DNA from: Candidatus Delongbacteria bacterium
Lineage (GTDB): Bacteria; UBA4055
NCBI GenBank assembly: GCA_013139625.1
Contig: WTAK01000455.1
Location: 1 to 6,722, forward strand
DNA: 6,722 bases
Direction of reading: 5' to 3'
This document shows positions 2 to 6,722 of this stretch, piece by piece (within the stretch, counting starts at the first letter, position 1; each line of letters starts with the position of its first letter). Position numbers and translations under genes: made by a program. The notes below the pieces were generated by a model. That model made no database searches. It saw nothing but the letters and a program-made list of their open reading frames with translations, and was not told the DNA's origin.

Positions 2-682
2 GGACTTTTCATGTTCATGCCTTTAATCTTTGGATCAATGTATTTTCAGAATTTCTCATTTACAGGTGATATGATCCTGATAATGTATTTCCAGTTCTTT
101 GGAATGCTGGGAATGGCAATGGGAGCCGGAGAAGCCGGTCAACCAAATTCTATAATAGGAATTAGTAGAGGACTTGCTCAATTCACAGTAGCTGAAATAC
201 CATTTACATTAGCAATAATCGCGATTGCAATTCAATATGATACTTTAACTATTAGTGGTATTGTTGCAGCACAGCAGGGCGGAATTATGAACTGGACGAT
301 GTTCCAGAATCCAATTGCTACTTTAGCAGGAATGTTAGCTTTCTTGGGAATAATGCGTCATGCACCATTTAATGTTGTTATGGCTCCTCAAGAAATACCG
401 ATCGGTCCTCCAACAGAATATCATTCAACTTACCTAGGAATGCTTCAATCTAATAGAGCAATACTTCATGTTGTTGAATCAGCATTGTTCATGAATTTAT
501 TCTTCGGTGGAGCTACAAGTTGGTTAGAATTAATAGTAAAAACATTCTTCATATATTTCATCACAGTATTCGTGGGAGTCGTATTCCCTAGATTCAGAGT
601 AGATCAATCGGTAAGATGGTTTATAAAGGTGCCATTAGTGGTTGGTATCCTAGGTGTAATATATGCAATGTATTTTGTTTAA
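2..682 (+). CDS. nuoH: Complex I-like membrane subunit H (NuoH/MbxM family), 5'-partial
   Basis: This is the C-terminal ~226 residues of a NuoH-family membrane subunit. The frame is open to the left edge, so the true start lies upstream; full-length members are about 300-350 residues. In the family NuoH anchors the peripheral arm in the membrane and forms the floor of the substrate cavity and the start of the ion path. Counting from the Met at position 11, hydrophobic segments lie near residues 22-38, 58-75, 102-115, 150-167 and 175-192, with a last one at 205-223. The family motif region GISRGLAQFTVAEIP (50-64) corresponds to the G-S-x-R-x-x-x-Q-x-x-x-x-E segment, and PFN...QEIPIGPPTEY (119-137) to the PFD...E...GxxTEY loop. 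That loop is unusually poor in acidic residues. A 26-base gap separates it from the nuoB homologue, indicating one transcript. The family call is firm; the branch (Mbx/Mbs-like rather than quinone-reducing complex I) is inferred. Confidence 0.88.
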   Translation, partial: GLFMFMPLIFGSMYFQNFSFTGDMILIMYFQFFGMLGMAMGAGEAGQPNSIIGISRGLAQFTVAEIPFTLAIIAIAIQYDTLTISGIVAAQQGGIMNWTMFQNPIATLAGMLAFLGIMRHAPFNVVMAPQEIPIGPPTEYHSTYLGMLQSNRAILHVVESALFMNLFFGGATSWLELIVKTFFIYFITVFVGVVFPRFRVDQSVRWFIKVPLVVGILGVIYAMYFV

Positions 683-708: not shown

Positions 709-1353
709 ATGACACGAATGTATGATTTAAAAAAGAGAACTGTAACTGCACCAGATGGTGAAGTATTTACAGTTGATCCGATGAAAGATTACTTTTGTGA
801 TAAACGACCGGAAGTTCAAGCTCCCGCTCATCCTGTAATTGAAAAGTTCTTCAATTGGGCAAGATCAAACTCACTATGGGTATTAGGATGGGGAACAGGT
901 TGTGGTAGTATGGAATTACCACCATTGACAACACCAAGATTCGATATGTTCAGATATGGTGTTCAGATGAGAGCTACTCCAAGGCAATCGGGCGTATTTA
1001 TCATATCAGGATATTTAGCTGTAAAAACTCTGAAAAGAGTTATCAGAGCTTATGAGCAAATGCAGGGTCCAAAATATATAATAGCATTAGGCAGTTGTAC
1101 TATAAACGGTGGAATGTACTATGATAGTTTCAATACTATCAATAGACTCGATCATTATATTCCTGTTGATGTTCACATTACAGGATGTATGCCAAGACCG
1201 GAAGCAATTCTTTCAGGGTTCGTTGAATTGAAGAAAAGGATCAGAGCAGGTAAGGCTGAAGGTGCTAATGATTATGCTGAGAGATTTGATTGGTATAAGG
1301 GTAATCAGAAAAAGGTCATTAAAGGCTGGGACATGCCTGACTATAATTGGTAA
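709..1353 (+). CDS. nuoB: Complex I-like Fe-S subunit B (NuoB/MbxJ family)
   Basis: A 214-residue homologue of NuoB, the subunit that carries the last Fe-S cluster (N2 in complex I, proximal cluster in hydrogenases) before the active site. Family signatures run in order: GTGCGSMELPP (62-72), RATPRQSGVFIISG (88-101), YEQMQGPKYIIALGSC (115-130) and PVDVHITGCMPRPEA (152-166). Candidate cluster ligands are C65, C130 and C160, with conserved E69. Where complex I has a tandem Cys-Cys, this protein has C65-G66, so only three of the usual four cysteines are present at the canonical sites; C30 lies in the N-terminal extension. An N-terminal stretch of about 40 residues and a charged C-terminal tail (175-214, ending in Trp) flank the core. 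It lies 26 bases after nuoH and 91 bases before nuoC; that second gap holds a repeat element. Family assignment is secure. The altered cluster site argues against ordinary ubiquinone-type complex I. Confidence 0.93.
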   Translation: MTRMYDLKKRTVTAPDGEVFTVDPMKDYFCDKRPEVQAPAHPVIEKFFNWARSNSLWVLGWGTGCGSMELPPLTTPRFDMFRYGVQMRATPRQSGVFIISGYLAVKTLKRVIRAYEQMQGPKYIIALGSCTINGGMYYDSFNTINRLDHYIPVDVHITGCMPRPEAILSGFVELKKRIRAGKAEGANDYAERFDWYKGNQKKVIKGWDMPDYNW

Positions 1354-1362
1354 TTTTTTTAC

Positions 1363-1415
1363 CACAGAGGACACAGAGGTCACAGAGATGTAGGGGAGGG
1401 TTTCTAACCCTCCCC
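1363..1415 (+). repeat. Composite intergenic repeat A: three CACAGAG units plus hairpin
   Basis: CACAGAG occurs at 1363, 1372 and 1381, exactly nine bases apart. After a short spacer, GTAGGG leads into a perfect 10-bp stem, GGGGAGGGTT (1393-1402) pairing with AACCCTCCCC (1406-1415), with a 3-base loop. The element fills most of the nuoB-nuoC gap and ends about 30 bases before the nuoC start. A second copy of the same architecture lies at 3234-3298. No T tract follows the stem, so it is not an intrinsic terminator. It could be a REP-like dispersed element or an RNA-stability hairpin. Confidence 0.8.
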
Positions 1416-1444: not shown

Positions 1445-1978
1445 ATGAAAGAGATATTAGAAAAAATTAAGACCAAATATGAAGTTACAGATGTTCTTCA
1501 GAAGAGAGCTGATCTTCTGTTCTTTACTATAGACAAGAAAATGGTATTGGATATTCTGAATTATTTGAAAGAATTGGAAGGTTTTACTCATTTAGTTATG
1601 CTATCCAGTGTTGATTGGTTGGAAGAGAATAAATTTCAGCTTACTTATATAATAAATCATCCTATCAATAAGCATGATATTGCGATAAGAGTTGATCTTA
1701 ACAGAGATGAAGCGACGATGGATTCTATCCATCATATTTGGATCCATGCTGAAACTGACCAAAGAGAAATTAAAGAATTGTTTGGTATAGATTTCCCTGG
1801 CAGCCCTGGTGTTGATGAAGATTTTGTTCTTGAAGATTGGGATGAGATACCACCTATGAGAAGAGATTTCGACACTTTGGAATATTCAGAGAGAACTTTC
1901 TTCCCTAGAGATGGAAGGAAGACTTACGATACAAAAGAATACATGAAGTCCAAATTATATCCGGATGACAAACAATAA
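1445..1978 (+). CDS. nuoC: Complex I-like subunit C (NuoC/MbxK family, 30-kDa subunit)
   Basis: A 177-residue homologue of the NuoC/30-kDa subunit, a peripheral-arm scaffold with no cofactor that packs against NuoD and NuoB. The N-terminal half (1-100) has the expected alpha/beta pattern, including HLVMLSSVDWLE (49-60) and a strand HDIAIRVDL (77-85). The C-terminal half has the family signature at Q106-R-E-I-K-E-L-F-G-I-D-F-P-G-S-P (106-121), matching the ERE..DLFGI.F.GHP pattern, then LEDWDEIPPMRRDF (129-142), matching the W..PLRKD region. The His of the usual GHP is Ser here. Length is normal for the stand-alone form. It is not fused to NuoD, unlike E. coli NuoCD. The start at 1445 is preceded by AAGG about nine bases upstream. 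The stop lies 14 bases before the nuoD start, so the two are tightly coupled. Confidence 0.92.
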   Translation: MKEILEKIKTKYEVTDVLQKRADLLFFTIDKKMVLDILNYLKELEGFTHLVMLSSVDWLEENKFQLTYIINHPINKHDIAIRVDLNRDEATMDSIHHIWIHAETDQREIKELFGIDFPGSPGVDEDFVLEDWDEIPPMRRDFDTLEYSERTFFPRDGRKTYDTKEYMKSKLYPDDKQ

Positions 1979-1992
1979 CCTGAGGTTTATAG

Positions 1993-3171
1993 ATGTTCAG
2001 TATAAAAGAAGACAGATCGAAATTTCCAACTAAAAAAGCAGATGGAACTCTAGACATAGATCTTGATTCACAAAAGTATGTAAAGATCTGGCAGGGACCG
2101 AATCATCCCGGTATTACAGGTAATATGGCTTTAGAGCTAACTGTTTCAGGTGATGAAGTAGTTCAATCCAAAACACATGTTGGGTATTTGTACAGAGCAT
2201 TTGAAAAATTGATGGAAAGAAGAAAATTCATTCAATGTTTTCCAATCTGTATCAGAATGTGCGTTCCTGAGCCTGATATCAATGAATATTTACTTGCTGC
2301 GTCTGTTGAAGAACTTGGAGGTATCGAAGTTCCTGAAATGGCTGAGTGGCTTAGAACTCTTGTATTAGAAATGGCGAGAGTTACGATATTACTCAGAGGA
2401 GTTCCCGGACAAGGTGGTACTATGAGTCTTGGTATGGGAGTTCAATGGGGAGTTTATGTTAGAGATCTTATGCTGGATAGATTCGAAGAACTTACTGGTG
2501 GTAGAGTTTACCATATGTACATTGCTCCGGGTGGAGTGAGAGGTCTTTTACCTTCTGGTTTCAAAGATAGAATGGAAGAAGTTTTAAAGAAAGTAGATGA
2601 ATTTGTAGTTGATATAGATAACTTAATGTTCAATAATGCCGTTTTTAAGGTAAGAACTAAAGGTGTTGGTATTATTGATAAAGATTGGATCGATCAATAC
2701 AGTGTTGTAGGACCTAATGCAAGAGCTGCGGGAATCATGAGAGATGTTAGAAAGGATTATCCATATCTAAAATATGACCAATTGGATTTTGAACCTCATA
2801 CTGAAACTGATTCGGATATTTATGCAAGATCAAGAGTAAGATGGCATGATCTTCAAACATCAGTAGATCTTATTCGTCAAATCATGGCGAAAATGCCTGA
2901 AAAAGGTGAGATCAGAGCTAAGACTCCTAACGTTCTTCACTGGAAAATACCTAAAGGCGAAACTTATCAGAGAATAGAGTCATCCAGAGGTGAATATGGT
3001 TTCTATATGGTTACTGACGGTAGTGCTTATCCTAGAAGGATAAATCTAAGAGGACCTAGTTATAATTCAGCAATGGTATTACTTGAAAAAATGCTTGTAA
3101 ACGCTAATATATCAGATGTTTCATCATTGATGGTATCATTAGCTACATGTCCACCAGAGATAGAGAGATAA
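1993..3171 (+). CDS. nuoD: Complex I-like catalytic subunit D (NuoD/MbxL family, 49-kDa subunit)
   Basis: A 392-residue homologue of NuoD and the [NiFe]-hydrogenase large subunit, which forms the active-site cavity with NuoB. Recognisable segments are GPNHPGITG (35-43), HVGYLYRAFEKL (62-73), PICIRMCVPEPDINE (84-98), RGVPGQGGTM (135-144), IAPGGVRGLLPSG (177-189), VVGPNARAAG (238-247), then RGPSYNS (353-359) and a C-terminal TCPPEIER (385-392). The residues matching the two quinone-binding positions of complex I (Thermus Nqo4 His38 and Tyr87) are T42 and V91. The positions of the two [NiFe] CxxC pairs read C90-V-P-E93 and C386-P-P-E389. The protein is therefore neither a standard quinone reductase nor a [NiFe] hydrogenase; an Mbx/Mbs-type ferredoxin- or sulfur-linked subunit is the better fit. 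TGAGG lies about seven bases before the ATG. A 160-base repeat-filled gap separates it from the NuoI fusion gene. Confidence 0.92.
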   Translation: MFSIKEDRSKFPTKKADGTLDIDLDSQKYVKIWQGPNHPGITGNMALELTVSGDEVVQSKTHVGYLYRAFEKLMERRKFIQCFPICIRMCVPEPDINEYLLAASVEELGGIEVPEMAEWLRTLVLEMARVTILLRGVPGQGGTMSLGMGVQWGVYVRDLMLDRFEELTGGRVYHMYIAPGGVRGLLPSGFKDRMEEVLKKVDEFVVDIDNLMFNNAVFKVRTKGVGIIDKDWIDQYSVVGPNARAAGIMRDVRKDYPYLKYDQLDFEPHTETDSDIYARSRVRWHDLQTSVDLIRQIMAKMPEKGEIRAKTPNVLHWKIPKGETYQRIESSRGEYGFYMVTDGSAYPRRINLRGPSYNSAMVLLEKMLVNANISDVSSLMVSLATCPPEIER

Positions 3172-3229: not shown

Positions 3230-3233
3230 GAAC

Positions 3234-3298
3234 CACAGAGAACACAGAGTTCACAGAGAAAAGAATATACTGTAGGGTCGGGGTTTACCTCCGACCTA
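3234..3298 (+). repeat. Composite intergenic repeat B: three CACAGAG units plus hairpin
   Basis: CACAGAG occurs at 3234, 3243 and 3252, again nine bases apart. The array is followed by CTGTAGGG and an imperfect hairpin. TAGG (3273-3276) pairs with CCTA (3295-3298), TCGG (3278-3281) with CCGA (3291-3294) and GG (3282-3283) with CC (3288-3289), with single-base bulges at 3277 and 3290. The layout matches the nuoB-nuoC gap element, but the hairpin sequence differs and its arms compensate each other, suggesting that the stem itself is kept. No T run follows, so it is not a terminator. It ends 33 bases before the next start codon. Confidence 0.78.
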
Positions 3299-3331: not shown

Positions 3332-5125
3332 ATGAGTATAAAAGATATATTATCACCATTTTCAGCTTGGAAAAAAGTAATTAAAGATCCTGTTACTGTC
3401 AAAGATCCATTCAATGACAGACCGGGAGCTCCAAGATATAGAGGATTTCATAAGAATGAGTTAGATAAATGTATCGGCTGTGGTGCCTGTGAAGAAATTT
3501 GTCAGAATGCTGCAATTGATATGGTTCCTGTCGAAGGTATTGAAACAGTCGAAGGGGACAGTGGATTGAGACCTATGGTTGATTACGGTAGATGCTGCTG
3601 GTGTGCTCTCTGTGTTGATATTTGTTCAACGAATTCGCTGACTTTATCTAATGAATATACCTGGATCGACTCAGACCCGGATGTTTTTAGATTTATTCCC
3701 GGCTATGATAAGAAGGAATGGGATAATAGTAAACTTGGATGGACTAAACCTAAAAACTATGATCTCAACACTTATGAAAGAGTTGAGATGAAAGAGCTTC
3801 ATCCTGAGGAAAGAGATAAATCATTTATTGAATTTGTAAAAGGTTATTCAAAAGAACAGGCAGAAGCTGAGGCGGACAGATGTATTGATTGTGGTCTTTG
3901 TACTGCAACTTGCCCTGCTCATATGTCTATTCCTGAATATATCAAAGCTATTAGAAATGATGACATGGAAGAAGGTCTTAGAATAATGTATGAAACTAAT
4001 CCTTTACCTGAGATATGTGGTAGAATTTGTACTCATAAGTGTGAAACTGTTTGTGCTATCGGTCACAAAGGTGAACCATTGTCAATACGATGGCTGAAAA
4101 GATATATTGCTGATCAAGTACCTGAAAGTAAATACAAAGAAGTTCTGGAACAAGGTTTGGAAATTACTCCGAAGAGTAAAAAAGTGGCTATAATCGGTTC
4201 AGGTCCATCAGGACTTTCAGCGGCATACTATTTATCAAGAATGGGATATGCAACTAAGATATTTGAGTCACTACCTGAAGCCGGAGGTATGATGAGATAT
4301 GGTATTCCTTCGTATCGTCTTCCTTACGATCAGATAGATAAAGACATCAATTATATCTTATCATGTGGCGTTGAGATCGAATATAATGTAAAAATTGGAA
4401 AAGATATTACTATAGAACAACTTGAAAAAGATTATGATGCAGTATTCTCAGGTACAGGACTTCACTTAGGTAGAAGTACAAGAATTCCGGGTTCTGAACA
4501 TGAAAATGTTTTCTTTGCAACTGATCTTCTAAGAGAAATTTCACTGGGAACTGAGATCAAAGTCGATGAAAAGATAGTTGTTATTGGTGGTGGTAATGTT
4601 GCAATGGATATTACCAGATCACTTGCTAGGCTTCAAAATCAGAAGTATGGTAAAGTAGATGTATTGGCGACTTGTCTGGAAGCTGAAGATATTATGCCTG
4701 CTGATAGGGAAGAGGTTGTTGAAGCCAGAGAGGAAAAAGCAATTGTGGATCCGGGATGGGGTCCTAAAGATATTAAGATCGAAAATGGTAAAATTAAAGG
4801 TTTGAATGTTGTTAAATGTCTTTCTGTGTTCGATGATGAAGGTAGATTCAGTCCTAAATTTGATGAAGATAAAAAGAAATTCTTCCCAGCAGAAATGGTC
4901 GTTGAATCAATTGGTCAAGGCATGGATCTAACTTACATTGATTCTATCAAAGACAAACTTGAATTCAGTGATAGAGGCAGAATTGTTGTAAATGAAAAGT
5001 ACCAATCATCACTTCCTTGGTTCTTCGTTGGTGGAGATATTATTAAAGGTCCTGATGTAATCAATGGAATTGCGAATGGTCATATCGCAGCAAAAGGTAT
5101 TGATGAATTTTTAAATAAGAAATAA
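3332..5125 (+). CDS. NuoI-like ferredoxin domain fused to a GltD/NfnL-like NAD(P)H oxidoreductase
   Basis: A 597-residue fusion. Residues 1-135 resemble NuoI/MbxN: a PVTVKDPF...RYRGFH lead-in, then two ferredoxin motifs, C47-x2-C50-x2-C53-x3-C57 and C88-x2-C91-x2-C94-x3-C98. Residues 165-262 form the Fe-S domain of GltD/NfnL/dihydropyrimidine dehydrogenase proteins, with C184, C187, C190 and C194-Pro, then C229, C233, C237 and C241. Residues 283-597 are the flavoprotein part: FAD motif GSGPSG (289-294), the family's GGMMRYGIPSYRLP (318-331), pyridine-nucleotide motif GGGNVAMD (419-426), MPADREE (455-461) and terminal FAD motif VGGDIIKGP (566-574). It would carry electrons between NAD(P)H, FAD and a chain of about four [4Fe-4S] clusters into the NuoB/NuoD core, replacing NuoEFG. 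The Arg pair that usually binds the NADPH 2'-phosphate after the second Rossmann strand reads T447-C448, so NADH is plausible. AGAGG (3321-3325) sets the start. Glutamate synthase activity is unlikely, as no large subunit is nearby. Confidence 0.9.
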   Translation: MSIKDILSPFSAWKKVIKDPVTVKDPFNDRPGAPRYRGFHKNELDKCIGCGACEEICQNAAIDMVPVEGIETVEGDSGLRPMVDYGRCCWCALCVDICSTNSLTLSNEYTWIDSDPDVFRFIPGYDKKEWDNSKLGWTKPKNYDLNTYERVEMKELHPEERDKSFIEFVKGYSKEQAEAEADRCIDCGLCTATCPAHMSIPEYIKAIRNDDMEEGLRIMYETNPLPEICGRICTHKCETVCAIGHKGEPLSIRWLKRYIADQVPESKYKEVLEQGLEITPKSKKVAIIGSGPSGLSAAYYLSRMGYATKIFESLPEAGGMMRYGIPSYRLPYDQIDKDINYILSCGVEIEYNVKIGKDITIEQLEKDYDAVFSGTGLHLGRSTRIPGSEHENVFFATDLLREISLGTEIKVDEKIVVIGGGNVAMDITRSLARLQNQKYGKVDVLATCLEAEDIMPADREEVVEAREEKAIVDPGWGPKDIKIENGKIKGLNVVKCLSVFDDEGRFSPKFDEDKKKFFPAEMVVESIGQGMDLTYIDSIKDKLEFSDRGRIVVNEKYQSSLPWFFVGGDIIKGPDVINGIANGHIAAKGIDEFLNKK

Positions 5126-5266: not shown

Positions 5267-6722
5267 ATGAAAGCCATGAAACTACTAATAATTGTACTAT
5301 TTATCAGTGCAATACAATTGTTTTCTCAATTTCCGGGTACTGCACTAGAATTTGACGGAGTTGATGAATTTGTATCAATCTCAGATAACGCATCGTTAGA
5401 TATTACCAATGCAATAACAATTGAAGCTTGGATATATGCAAATACATGGAAAGCAAACCACTGGGATGGAACTATAGTTGGTAAGGACGGAACAGACAAA
5501 ACGGGTTATAACTTACGATGTGGTGATAATGGAAGCTTAAGCTTTGTTAATGGGATTGCAGGAGACTGGCCGGAAGCAGTATCCTCTCAAATAATGTCAA
5601 CAAATGAATGGTATCATGTTGCAGGAGTTTATGATGGAAGTAGTCAGAAGGTATATATAAATGGTGAGTTAGTTGCAGAAAATTTATCTTCAGGTACTAT
5701 TGGTGTAAATACTAACAATCTTCAAATAGGAGATTCTCAGGGATATCCCGGTAGATTATTTGATGGCAAGATAGATGAAGTTCGTATTTGGAATATTGCA
5801 AGGACTGAAACCGAGATCCAAGACAATATGTATTCCTCTTTAGACGGTACAGAAACTGGGCTTATTGCATATTATGAACTGGATGAAGGAACCGGAATGA
5901 TAGCAGGGGATACTGCAGGAAGTAATGACGGAACGCTAACTAATATGGAAGAAGAAGATTGGGTAGGCTCAATTCCTCCACCATCGGTTGTATTACTTTC
6001 CAATCCGGGTTCATTTACGCTAGTAACTGGAAATTTTAATGGAATAGATGTAGGACAGTATTCTTCACCAACTATTGCGGATATTGATGGCAATGGCTTG
6101 TTTGATATGTTAGTGGGTGAAGGAAATGGTAATGGTAACATAAACCATTATGAGCAGAATGCTATTAATAACACAGAATTTACACTTGTAACAGAAAGTT
6201 TTAACGGAATTAATGTGGGAAATATATCTGAACCAATTATTATCGATATAGATGGAGATAGATTACTGGATATGCTAGTTGGGGAATGGGATGGTAATAT
6301 AAACCATTACGAACAAAACTCTCTAAATTCTACCTCGTTTACACTTGTAACAACCTCTTTTAATTCAATTGATGTAGGTTATAGTTCAGCTCCAACCTTT
6401 ACCGATTTGGATGGAGATGGATTACTGGATATGCTAGTTGGAGAATATGATGGGAATATAAATCATTACGAACAAAACTCTCTAAATTCTACATCATTTA
6501 CATTAGTAACTGCAAACTTCAATTCAATAGATGTGGGCCGTAGCTCTAAACCAACCTTTGCCGATCTAGACGGAAATGGTTTACTTGATATGCTTATTGG
6601 GGAAGACGGTGGGAATATAAACCATTATAAGCAGGATGCAGAAAATTCTCTTTCCTTTTCACTTATAACTGAGAATTTTAATGGAATTAATTTAGGACTT
6701 TATGGTAATCCGATATCAATAT
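5267..6722 (+). CDS. Secreted LamG-domain protein with FG-GAP/VCBS-like repeats, 3'-partial
   Basis: The frame is open from 5267 to the window end, giving at least 485 residues with no stop. Residues 1-20 form a classic signal peptide: Lys at 2 and 5, a hydrophobic [11 protein letters not shown] core, and likely cleavage near S20-Q21. Residues about 24-195 form a LamG/concanavalin A-like jelly roll: ALEFDG (26-31) and IEAWIY (52-57) near the start, [11 protein letters not shown] (114-124) and YINGEL (130-135) in the middle, and [16 protein letters not shown] (165-180) closing the fold. An acidic linker with a PPPS turn (226-240) follows. From residue 250 come tandem ~53-residue units, each with a D-x-D-G-[DN]-x-L-x-D calcium-type loop followed by DML(V/I)GE, as in FG-GAP/VCBS propeller repeats. 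A cell-surface or secreted adhesion or carbohydrate-binding role is likely; no catalytic motif is visible. A C-terminal sorting domain (type IX in Bacteroidota relatives) could lie past the window. It is a separate transcription unit from the operon. Confidence 0.87.
6014..6722 (+). repeat. In-frame tandem repeat array, about 159-base units, inside the surface-protein gene
   Basis: Units begin at the Phe codon of the F-[TS]-L-[VI]-T motif at 6014, 6179, 6338, 6497 and 6656, giving lengths of 165, 159, 159 and 159 bases and a fifth unit cut by the window edge. The first unit is two codons longer through an extra Gly/Asn insertion. The core second half of units 2 and 3 differs at about ten of some 95 bases by eye count, mostly third positions, and the stretch ACTCTCTAAATTCTAC is identical in both. 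This indicates recent duplication. Each unit encodes one calcium-loop repeat ending in NINHY[EK]Q. Confidence 0.88.

What the first reader, a model, noticed from the sequence alone, without database searches (positions are those of the whole stretch)
3332..5125. NuoI fused to a GltD/NfnL-type NAD(P)H module in place of NuoEFG
One 597-residue chain joins a two-cluster NuoI-like domain to a complete Fe-S/FAD/pyridine-nucleotide oxidoreductase, with 16 cysteines in four recognisable motifs. It follows nuoD directly, with no nuoE, nuoF or nuoG. The natural inference is a complex I-like pump whose soluble electron-input (or output) module was swapped for an NfnL-like one and made permanent by fusion. 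This could be an ion-pumping ferredoxin:NAD(P)+ oxidoreductase acting as an Rnf substitute, or a NAD(P)H-driven sulfur reductase. Mbx-type gene clusters with a nearby GltD-like gene exist, as I recall for Thermotoga; the covalent fusion is the part worth tracing.
Basis: partly seen in the sequence, partly recalled or inferred. Interest (0 to 1): 0.72.

Follow-up and report, generated by a model that had tools for sequence, protein, structure and literature searches.

The report
Sulfur-reductase pump with built-in NADH module
In a relative of the uncultured Delongbacteria, one gene fuses an electron-carrying subunit of a sulfur-reductase-type relative of respiratory complex I to an NAD(P)H-enzyme module, which likely lets the predicted ion pump run directly on NADH; the fusion is widespread and is also present in Thermotoga maritima.

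Summary
The fusion is real: one 597-residue reading frame, intact in 70 of 78 related loci, with all 16 predicted Fe-S ligand cysteines invariant in 71 of 71 sequences. It does not belong to a quinone complex I: its B, D and I parts are closest to P. furiosus MBS (sulfane reductase), both quinone-site residues are gone, the terminal cluster site keeps three cysteines, and relatives show a complete Mrp-type arm. Rnf is present in the same genome. The fusion is common (NCBIfam PRK13984-like) and T. maritima encodes it. New here: two nicotinamide-site types occur, Leu-Glu (window, Thermotoga; predicted NADH) and Arg-Arg (predicted NADPH); the closest relative genome carries one operon of each. 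In the window's class the nicotinamide module does not share the history of the core subunits (core-tree clades rejected for the module, p 3e-4 or lower), which indicates module exchange; the donor is unresolved. K256 matches the non-bifurcating StnC flavin, not bifurcating NfnB. Best reading: a likely NADH-fed, non-quinone, ion-pumping polysulfide/disulfide reductase. No activity was tested, and cluster distances could not be measured.

The parts
2..682 (+). NuoH/MbsM-type membrane anchor, 5' part cut by the contig end
   Evidence: PF00146 E 2e-35
709..1353 (+). NuoB/MbsJ-type subunit with a three-cysteine proximal cluster site (C65, C130, C160; the position of MbsJ C25 is glycine)
   Evidence: PDB best hit 6u8y_J (P. 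furiosus MBS) 202.5 bits against 132.7 for the next; C65 and C130 in 60 of 60, C160 in 59 of 60, residue 62 glycine in 59 of 60
1445..1978 (+). NuoC/MbsK-type subunit
   Evidence: PF00329 E 8.2e-23
1993..3171 (+). NuoD/MbsL-type subunit; quinone-site residues replaced (T42, V91); no [NiFe] cysteine pairs
   Evidence: 6u8y_L 285.6 bits, Thermus Nqo4 173.9, MBH 6cfw_L 121.7; T42 in 66 of 67 and V91 in 67 of 67; C-terminal CxxC in 0 of 50 NuoD sequences, N-terminal CxxC absent in the window
3332..5125 (+). NuoI/MbsN::NfnL/GltD fusion, 597 aa
   Evidence: (NF010590 aligned over residues 1-596, 894.3 bits, under its 946 cut-off); AlphaFold2 model mean pLDDT 91.6, pTM 0.86
3332..3706 (+). residues 1-125: two-[4Fe-4S] MbsN/NuoI domain (cysteine motifs 3470-3502 and 3593-3625)
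   Evidence: 6u8y_N 83.5 bits against 48.4 for the next NuoI
3815..4129 (+). Fer4_20 helical domain, two predicted [4Fe-4S] clusters (3881-3913 and 4016-4054) and K256 (4097-4099)
   Evidence: PF14691 E 5.6e-31; K256 in 44 of 44, aligned with StnC K170 (counted on the alignment)
4157..5122 (+). residues 276-597: FAD and nicotinamide Rossmann domains; Leu449-Glu450 (4676-4681) where some relatives have Arg-Arg

Best explanation
Window 3332-5125 encodes one chain that joins the two-cluster electron-entry subunit of an MBS/Mbx-type complex to an NfnL/GltD-type Fe-S/FAD/nicotinamide module, and it likely feeds electrons from NADH into a predicted ion-pumping polysulfide (or other disulfide) reductase. 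Predicted path: NADH -> FAD -> two [4Fe-4S] clusters of the Fer4_20 domain -> two [4Fe-4S] clusters of the MbsN/NuoI domain -> the three-cysteine [4Fe-4S] cluster of NuoB/MbsJ, where an S-S bond would be reduced; the energy would drive the Mrp-type Na+/H+ membrane arm. Shown by sequence: the fusion, the 16 ligand cysteines, the MBS-type B/D/I subunits, loss of the quinone and [NiFe] residues, the three-cysteine site, and (in relatives) the complete Mrp-type arm. Inferred: NADH rather than NADPH (no NADP arginines; Glu450), a non-bifurcating flavin (K256 as in StnC), direction of flow, sulfur as acceptor, and Na+ as the ion. In the window's class the nicotinamide module has a different history from the core subunits, probably by exchange between Mbx lineages.
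For: MBS kinship of D, B and I. Operon in relatives: MrpE-F-G, MbhD-type, MrpB, MrpC, double antiporter, NuoH (Pfam), then B-C-D-fusion; all 12 genes in this order in 44 of 44 loci that hold all 12, of 78 loci. MBS reduces polysulfide at a three-cysteine cluster, and its C25, C85 and C385 are dispensable (PMC7684303); here the three ligands are kept and C25 is lost. Quinone residues are lost. In 21 fusion genomes menB is over its cut-off in 0 and PF02621 in 1. No [NiFe] pairs. T. maritima mbxA rises 4.36-fold with S0 (PMC9431562), and T. maritima encodes a Leu-Glu fusion. Two NfnB arginines bind the NADP phosphate (PMC6405883); they are missing here. K256 aligns with StnC K170 of a non-bifurcating flavin; NfnB has Glu there (PMC10482914). 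Module history: clades of the core tree that hold the window's class are rejected for the module, p 3.2e-5 and 2.9e-4 over residues 165-597.
Against: No biochemistry was found for any fused member. The energy gap from NADH to polysulfide is small by textbook potentials (recalled), so a pump fed by NADH alone would have little to spend. Sulfur use by the window organism was not tested. MBS in P. furiosus takes electrons from ferredoxin, and ferredoxin could still dock here. Cofactor choice rests on two residues and a general rule. T. maritima, itself a carrier of the fusion, rings for PF02621 as a control, so that marker is not a clean sign of quinone use. That P0149 lies in the T. maritima mbx operon was not checked. 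The donor of the module is unresolved: uniting the window's class with class C is not rejected (p 0.157 over 165-597; p 0.069 over 276-597). Cluster distances were not measured.
Confidence: 0.5

Rival explanations
1. Ion-pumping ferredoxin:NAD(P)+ oxidoreductase acting like Rnf: ferredoxin enters at the NuoI domain and NAD(P)+ is reduced at the GltD module.
For: Both electron carriers have a plausible site on one chain; the ferredoxin-to-NAD+ step is energetically ample, -34.7 kJ/mol (PMC7414866 passages).
Against: rnfD over cut-off in 7 of 7 fusion genomes searched, own included. This path would not use the conserved NuoB/NuoD site, where complex I relatives are thought to couple redox to pumping (recalled; for MBS).
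Confidence: 0.13
2. The same chain works in reverse: the ion gradient drives electrons from thiols or sulfide up to NAD(P)+.
For: The anatomy is the same as in the best reading; the potentials of NADH and polysulfide lie close together (recalled). The Arg-Arg class may suit NADP+ reduction.
Against: S0 induces mbxA in T. maritima, which fits S0 reduction.
Confidence: 0.15
3. Two-donor (confurcating) reductase: ferredoxin and NAD(P)H both feed one sulfur reduction through a bifurcating NfnL-type flavin.
Against: NfnB's Glu ligand is Lys (K256, 44 of 44), as in non-bifurcating StnC; no NfnS-like second flavin subunit among the genes of the L007 operon.
Confidence: 0.12
4. NADH:quinone complex I with a substitute input module.
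For: Overall subunit homology; the T. maritima mbx operon is called an NADH:ubiquinone oxidoreductase in print (PMC2246101 passage). One fusion genome, G356, does hit PF02621.
Against: Nqo4 H38 and Y87 counterparts are T (66 of 67) and V (67 of 67); both menaquinone markers are under cut-off or missing in 20 of 21 genomes.
Confidence: 0.03
5. H2-evolving group 4g [NiFe] hydrogenase linked to Mrp, as published for Cloacimonadota.
For: Published annotation (PMC8542988 passages); the text includes Ca. Zophobacter, the MAG that yielded L033, although the paper's table shows no hydrogenase for it.
Against: C-terminal CxxC in 0 of 50 NuoD sequences; N-terminal CxxC lacking in 30 of 50, the window included. 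Whether the published call refers to this same operon was not checked.
Confidence: 0.02

Closest known systems
P. furiosus MBS, membrane-bound sulfane reductase (PDB 6u8y)
   Same: Closest solved relative by sequence of NuoD, NuoB and the NuoI half; three-cysteine proximal cluster site; no quinone or [NiFe] site; Mrp-type arm in relatives
   Different: MBS has a separate MbsN and uses ferredoxin; here the GltD module is fused, the C25 counterpart is Gly, and in relatives the two antiporters are one ~1045-residue chain
T. maritima MBX
   Same: T. maritima encodes a 615-aa fusion of the same layout with a Leu-Glu nicotinamide site (P0149)
   Different: The passages seen treat MBX as a 13-subunit ferredoxin:sulfur enzyme and do not mention the module; P0149 was found with a class B query (62% identity), a different core lineage from the window's
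NfnL/NfnB (5jca, 5jfc, 4ylf)
   Different: No NfnS partner seen; Lys for Glu at the FAD-proximal cluster; no Tyr-Arg-Arg motif
StnC of Sporomusa (8oh5) and NfnABC large subunits (9bov, 9n5u)
   Same: GltD-like module with the lysine at the cluster position (alignments; shown as a ligand for StnC), fused to further Fe-S domains
   Different: StnC is fused to a NuoG-like part in a bifurcating transhydrogenase; all three have Tyr-Arg-Arg
NCBIfam NF010590 / PRK13984 'putative oxidoreductase'
   Same: Aligns over residues 1-596
   Different: 894.3 bits, under the curated 946; no function assigned
AegA/YgfT (NF009408, NF009451)
   Same: Ferredoxin-type domain in front of a GltD module
   Different: Not in a complex I-type operon (recalled); match starts at residue 45 and is weaker (263 and 204 bits)

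Membership tests
MBS/Mbx (membrane-bound sulfane reductase type) | NuoD/MbsL lacks the counterparts of Nqo4 H38 and Y87 | tested here: met
   T42 in 66 of 67, V91 in 67 of 67, register
MBS/Mbx (membrane-bound sulfane reductase type) | Proximal cluster with three cysteine ligands in NuoB/MbsJ | tested here: met
   C65, C130 60/60; C160 59/60; C25 position Gly 59/60
MBS/Mbx (membrane-bound sulfane reductase type) | Mrp-type membrane arm with two antiporter units | tested here: met
   Pfam on L007; order in 44 of 44 loci that hold all 12 genes; not visible in the window itself
MBS/Mbx (membrane-bound sulfane reductase type) | MbsL C85 and C385 retained | tested here: inconclusive
   Present in the window (C90, C386), in 50 of 67 and 46 of 67 overall; dispensable in MBS
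MBS/Mbx (membrane-bound sulfane reductase type) | Reduces polysulfide and pumps Na+ | not testable with these tools
   No assay
Respiratory complex I (Nuo) | NuoEFG input module | tested here: not met
   None in the L007 operon; nuoF model over cut-off in 2 of 21 fusion genomes, not in G000, whose 4 hits are below it
Respiratory complex I (Nuo) | Quinone-binding His/Tyr in NuoD | tested here: not met
Group 4 [NiFe] hydrogenase | Two CxxC pairs in the large subunit | tested here: not met
   C-terminal pair in 0 of 50 NuoD, N-terminal pair in 20 of 50 and not in the window
Bifurcating Nfn | NfnS partner, Glu at the FAD-proximal cluster, NADP arginines in NfnL | tested here: not met
   No partner gene in the L007 operon; Lys256 and Leu449-Glu450 in the window
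NF010590 / PRK13984 | Score over the curated cut-off of 946 bits | tested here: not met
   894.3 bits over the full length; one of 14 control genomes passes
Rnf substitute | Genome lacks rnf | tested here: not met
   rnfD over cut-off in 7 of 7, own included

The most novel reading that the evidence does not exclude
A second, independently built NADH-fed complex I: a non-quinone, ion-pumping disulfide reductase whose NADH module is an NfnL/GltD unit welded to the electron-entry subunit, with the nicotinamide module exchanged between operon lineages so that NADH-fed and NADPH-fed versions coexist in one cell.
Probability: 0.4. Interest if true: 0.8.

Novelty: new variant of a known kind. Interest (0 to 1): 0.6.

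Why it matters
If true, sulfur-reductase-type complex I relatives in many uncultured anaerobes (loci here are titled Bacteroidales, Spirochaetes, Cloacimonadota, Fermentibacteria, Neomarinimicrobiota) and in Thermotoga run on NAD(P)H, not on ferredoxin alone. That would change published energy budgets, such as the ferredoxin-fed MBX model for T. maritima. It would also correct labels in use: NADH:ubiquinone oxidoreductase, glutamate synthase small chain, and perhaps group 4g hydrogenase. The Leu-Glu/Arg-Arg split gives a direct, cheap test, and a matched pair of operons sits in one genome.

Tried and rejected
Rnf-substitute, quinone and [NiFe] readings: tested and set back. Unfused class: three loci were first called unfused (L096, L097, L098); L098 turned out to be cut by its contig end with no stop, so only L096 and L097 stand, and the AU test that treated three 'A' rows as a class is void. 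Two AU tests that I first took for two results ('W without L063 plus C', p 0.021, and 'L063 plus B', p 0.019) are one and the same split of the 44 rows; the same holds for the pair (p 0.157 and 0.15). The better question, whether the module can follow the core tree, was tested afterwards. The class labels A, B, C and W were given partly by the Leu-Glu/Arg-Arg motif itself, so '21/21, 10/10, 13/13' is no independent evidence. Fer4_20 region (165-275): no resolved tree; it leans with the core subunits, so the joint may lie near residue 276 and not in the 135-165 linker; for L063 identity to the window class rises already from about residue 150. Fold comparison tested residues 144-597; no listed row covered the NuoI half. 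Papers: no description of the fusion was seen in searches (listings); 'PRK13984' gave 0 papers. Most subscription papers are not held, so prior description is not excluded; one relevant review (PMC8165549) is not held. Intergenic inverted repeats: none of 12 bases or more.

Full report
OBSERVATION. The window is one whole contig, C447, of a 2.61 Mb draft genome of 88% completeness. It holds five genes of a complex I-type cluster on the + strand: a 5'-cut NuoH (2-682), NuoB (709-1353), NuoC (1445-1978), NuoD (1993-3171) and the 597-residue fusion (3332-5125). An unrelated LamG/FG-GAP protein follows from 5267. The fusion has a two-cluster ferredoxin-type domain (residues 46-101), a Fer4_20 domain (162-266) and a Pyr_redox_2 domain (283-575). 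The coordinates and the description in the finding are right.

IS IT REAL. A scan of representative genomes gave 78 loci. In 70 of them the fusion is one intact frame; of the other 8, five are incomplete, two are broken outside residues 135-165, and one is a 50-residue match. In the 71 full sequences including the window, all 16 ligand cysteines and C89 are invariant. A protein search gave 7,938 hits among the 7,999 candidates it scored (a cap); the 120 listed are all 593-610 residues long and at least 70% identical. NCBIfam NF010590 (PRK13984, 'putative oxidoreductase') aligns over residues 1-596 with 894.3 bits, under its cut-off of 946. A second search, with the fusion of L100, listed a 615-residue protein of T. 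maritima MSB8 (P0149), whose sequence shows the same layout. So the fusion is an established, widespread protein; the source names shown are mostly FAD-dependent oxidoreductase, oxidoreductase or glutamate synthase small chain.

WHICH COMPLEX. By sequence, NuoD scores 285.6 bits with P. furiosus MBS (6u8y_L), 173.9 with Thermus Nqo4 and 121.7 with the MBH hydrogenase. NuoB scores 202.5 with MBS against 132.7 for the next. The NuoI half scores 83.5 against 48.4. In the nearest relative L007 (Candidatus Delongbacteria, 92% identity) the operon reads MrpE, F, G, MbhD-type, MrpB, MrpC-type, a 1047-residue chain with two antiporter stretches, NuoH, B, C, D, fusion, then a CBS-domain gene. Forty-four of the 78 loci hold all 12 genes from MrpE to the fusion, and all 44 have them in this order; a CBS gene was found in 24 of the 78. 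There is no NuoE, NuoF or NuoG in the L007 operon. NuoF-like hits in the window's genome score below the NuoF cut-off; over it are 2 of 21 fusion genomes, G056 and G356.

SITES. Counterparts of the quinone residues Nqo4 H38 and Y87 are T42 (66 of 67) and V91 (67 of 67). The MBS paper (PMC7684303; abstract and parts 1-3 of 6 of its text read) reports that MBS also lacks them, that its proximal cluster has only three cysteine ligands (C28, C93, C123), that C25 is too far to bind, and that mutants of C25 and of C85/C385 stay active. Here the three ligands are kept (60/60, 60/60, 59/60) and the C25 position is glycine in 59 of 60. The counterparts of C85 and C385 are kept in 50 and 46 of 67. A [NiFe] site is not expected: C-terminal CxxC in 0 of 50 NuoD sequences, N-terminal CxxC in 20 of 50 and not in the window (one of the 50, L113, is not MBS-type). 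In 21 fusion genomes menB is over its cut-off in none (weak hits in 3), and PF02621 occurs in one, G356. These are single markers in mostly draft genomes, and T. maritima, which has the fusion, rings for PF02621 as a control. rnfD is over its cut-off in 7 of 7 genomes searched, the window's own included.

FUSED AGAINST SEPARATE. Among 386 sampled genomes, 23 have a match to the fusion at E <= 1e-100. NuoD hits of 297 bits or more, which I count as MBS-type, occur in 26 genomes: the 23, plus G126 (fused, cut by its contig, L095), and G327 and G193, whose MbsN is a separate protein of 176 and 179 residues with a stop codon and no GltD-like gene in the locus (L096, L097). So 24 of 26 are fused and 2 are not. 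One further operon, L098 in G117, is cut and undecided; G117 has a fused one elsewhere.

MODULE EXCHANGE. I sorted the operons by the motif and the antiporters: class B (Leu-Glu, antiporters separate), class C (Arg-Arg, one double antiporter where whole), and W, the window's class (Leu-Glu; one double antiporter, except L063). Independent of these labels, the C25 position is cysteine in the B rows and in L063, and glycine in the C rows and the other W rows. Mean identity of the NuoI half of W is 61.7% to C and 44.0% to B; of the GltD half 42.6% to C and 48.7% to B. In the core tree (NuoD+NuoB+NuoI half) W without L063 lies inside C: 20 W and 13 C rows form one side (100/100), C as one side is rejected (p 0.0013), and L063 lies inside B; one clade of all W rows is rejected (p 3.6e-6). 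In the module tree W with L063 is one side (98/100) and C is one side (100/100). If module and core shared one history, the core-tree clades that join W to 3 or to 9 of the C rows should hold for the module. They are rejected: p 3.2e-5 and 2.9e-4 over residues 165-597, and p 5.1e-5 and below over 276-597 (support of these clades in the core tree 93/87 and 100/100). So the two parts of the chain have different histories. Who gave the module is not settled: uniting W with C as a whole is not rejected (p 0.157 over 165-597; p 0.069 over 276-597), and residues 165-275 are unresolved and lean with the core. L063 is the clearest single case: core inside B, module with W; putting its 276-597 part with B is rejected at p 0.02.

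MECHANISM. Putting this together: NADH (inferred) reduces FAD; electrons pass through two Fer4_20 clusters and two NuoI clusters to the three-cysteine NuoB cluster, where polysulfide or another S-S bond is reduced (inferred from MBS), and the Mrp-type arm moves ions (inferred from homology). Support from physiology is indirect: mbxA of T. maritima rises 4.36-fold with S0 (PMC9431562 passages). That paper models MBX as ferredoxin-fed; if P0149 is part of that complex (not checked), NADH would also enter.

LITERATURE. In the passages seen, the T. maritima mbx operon is called an NADH:ubiquinone oxidoreductase complex (PMC2246101) and a ferredoxin-fed sulfur reductase (PMC9431562). For Cloacimonadota, a Mrp-linked group 4g [NiFe] hydrogenase is reported; the text includes Ca. 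Zophobacter, whose MAG also yielded L033, while the table shows none for it (PMC8542988; that this means the same operon was not checked). No passage or listing seen describes the fused nicotinamide module, but most subscription papers are not held.

VERDICT. Real, common and so far named without a function: a variant of the MBS/Mbx complex with its own nicotinamide input. The chemistry is untested.

Noticed in passing
window 1362-1387 and 3233-3258; G000:C252:1609-1634: A short CACAGAG-type repeat lies in the nuoB-nuoC and nuoD-fusion gaps, and again in the nuoB-nuoC gap of the second Mbx operon of the same genome; 13 copies genome-wide with up to 2 mismatches, 0 for the reversed control. Three of 13 sit in Mbx operons.
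   Followed up: partly
P0193 (753 aa, from the search service): A longer version of the fusion carries a C-terminal stretch with PF02915 (rubrerythrin); a number of ~750-residue forms are listed, some named Spirochaetales.
   Followed up: no
G000:C465 and G000:C23: Other GltD-type modules in the same genome, one beside a NuoF-like gene (C465) and one in a 1460-residue chain (C23); both have Tyr-Arg-Arg.
   Followed up: no
L007:3228-6371: The two antiporter subunits are one ~1040-1060-residue chain in most loci where the gene is whole, but separate in class B and in L063.
   Followed up: partly
window 5267-6722: LamG plus FG-GAP repeat protein, cut by the contig end; not part of the operon.
   Followed up: no
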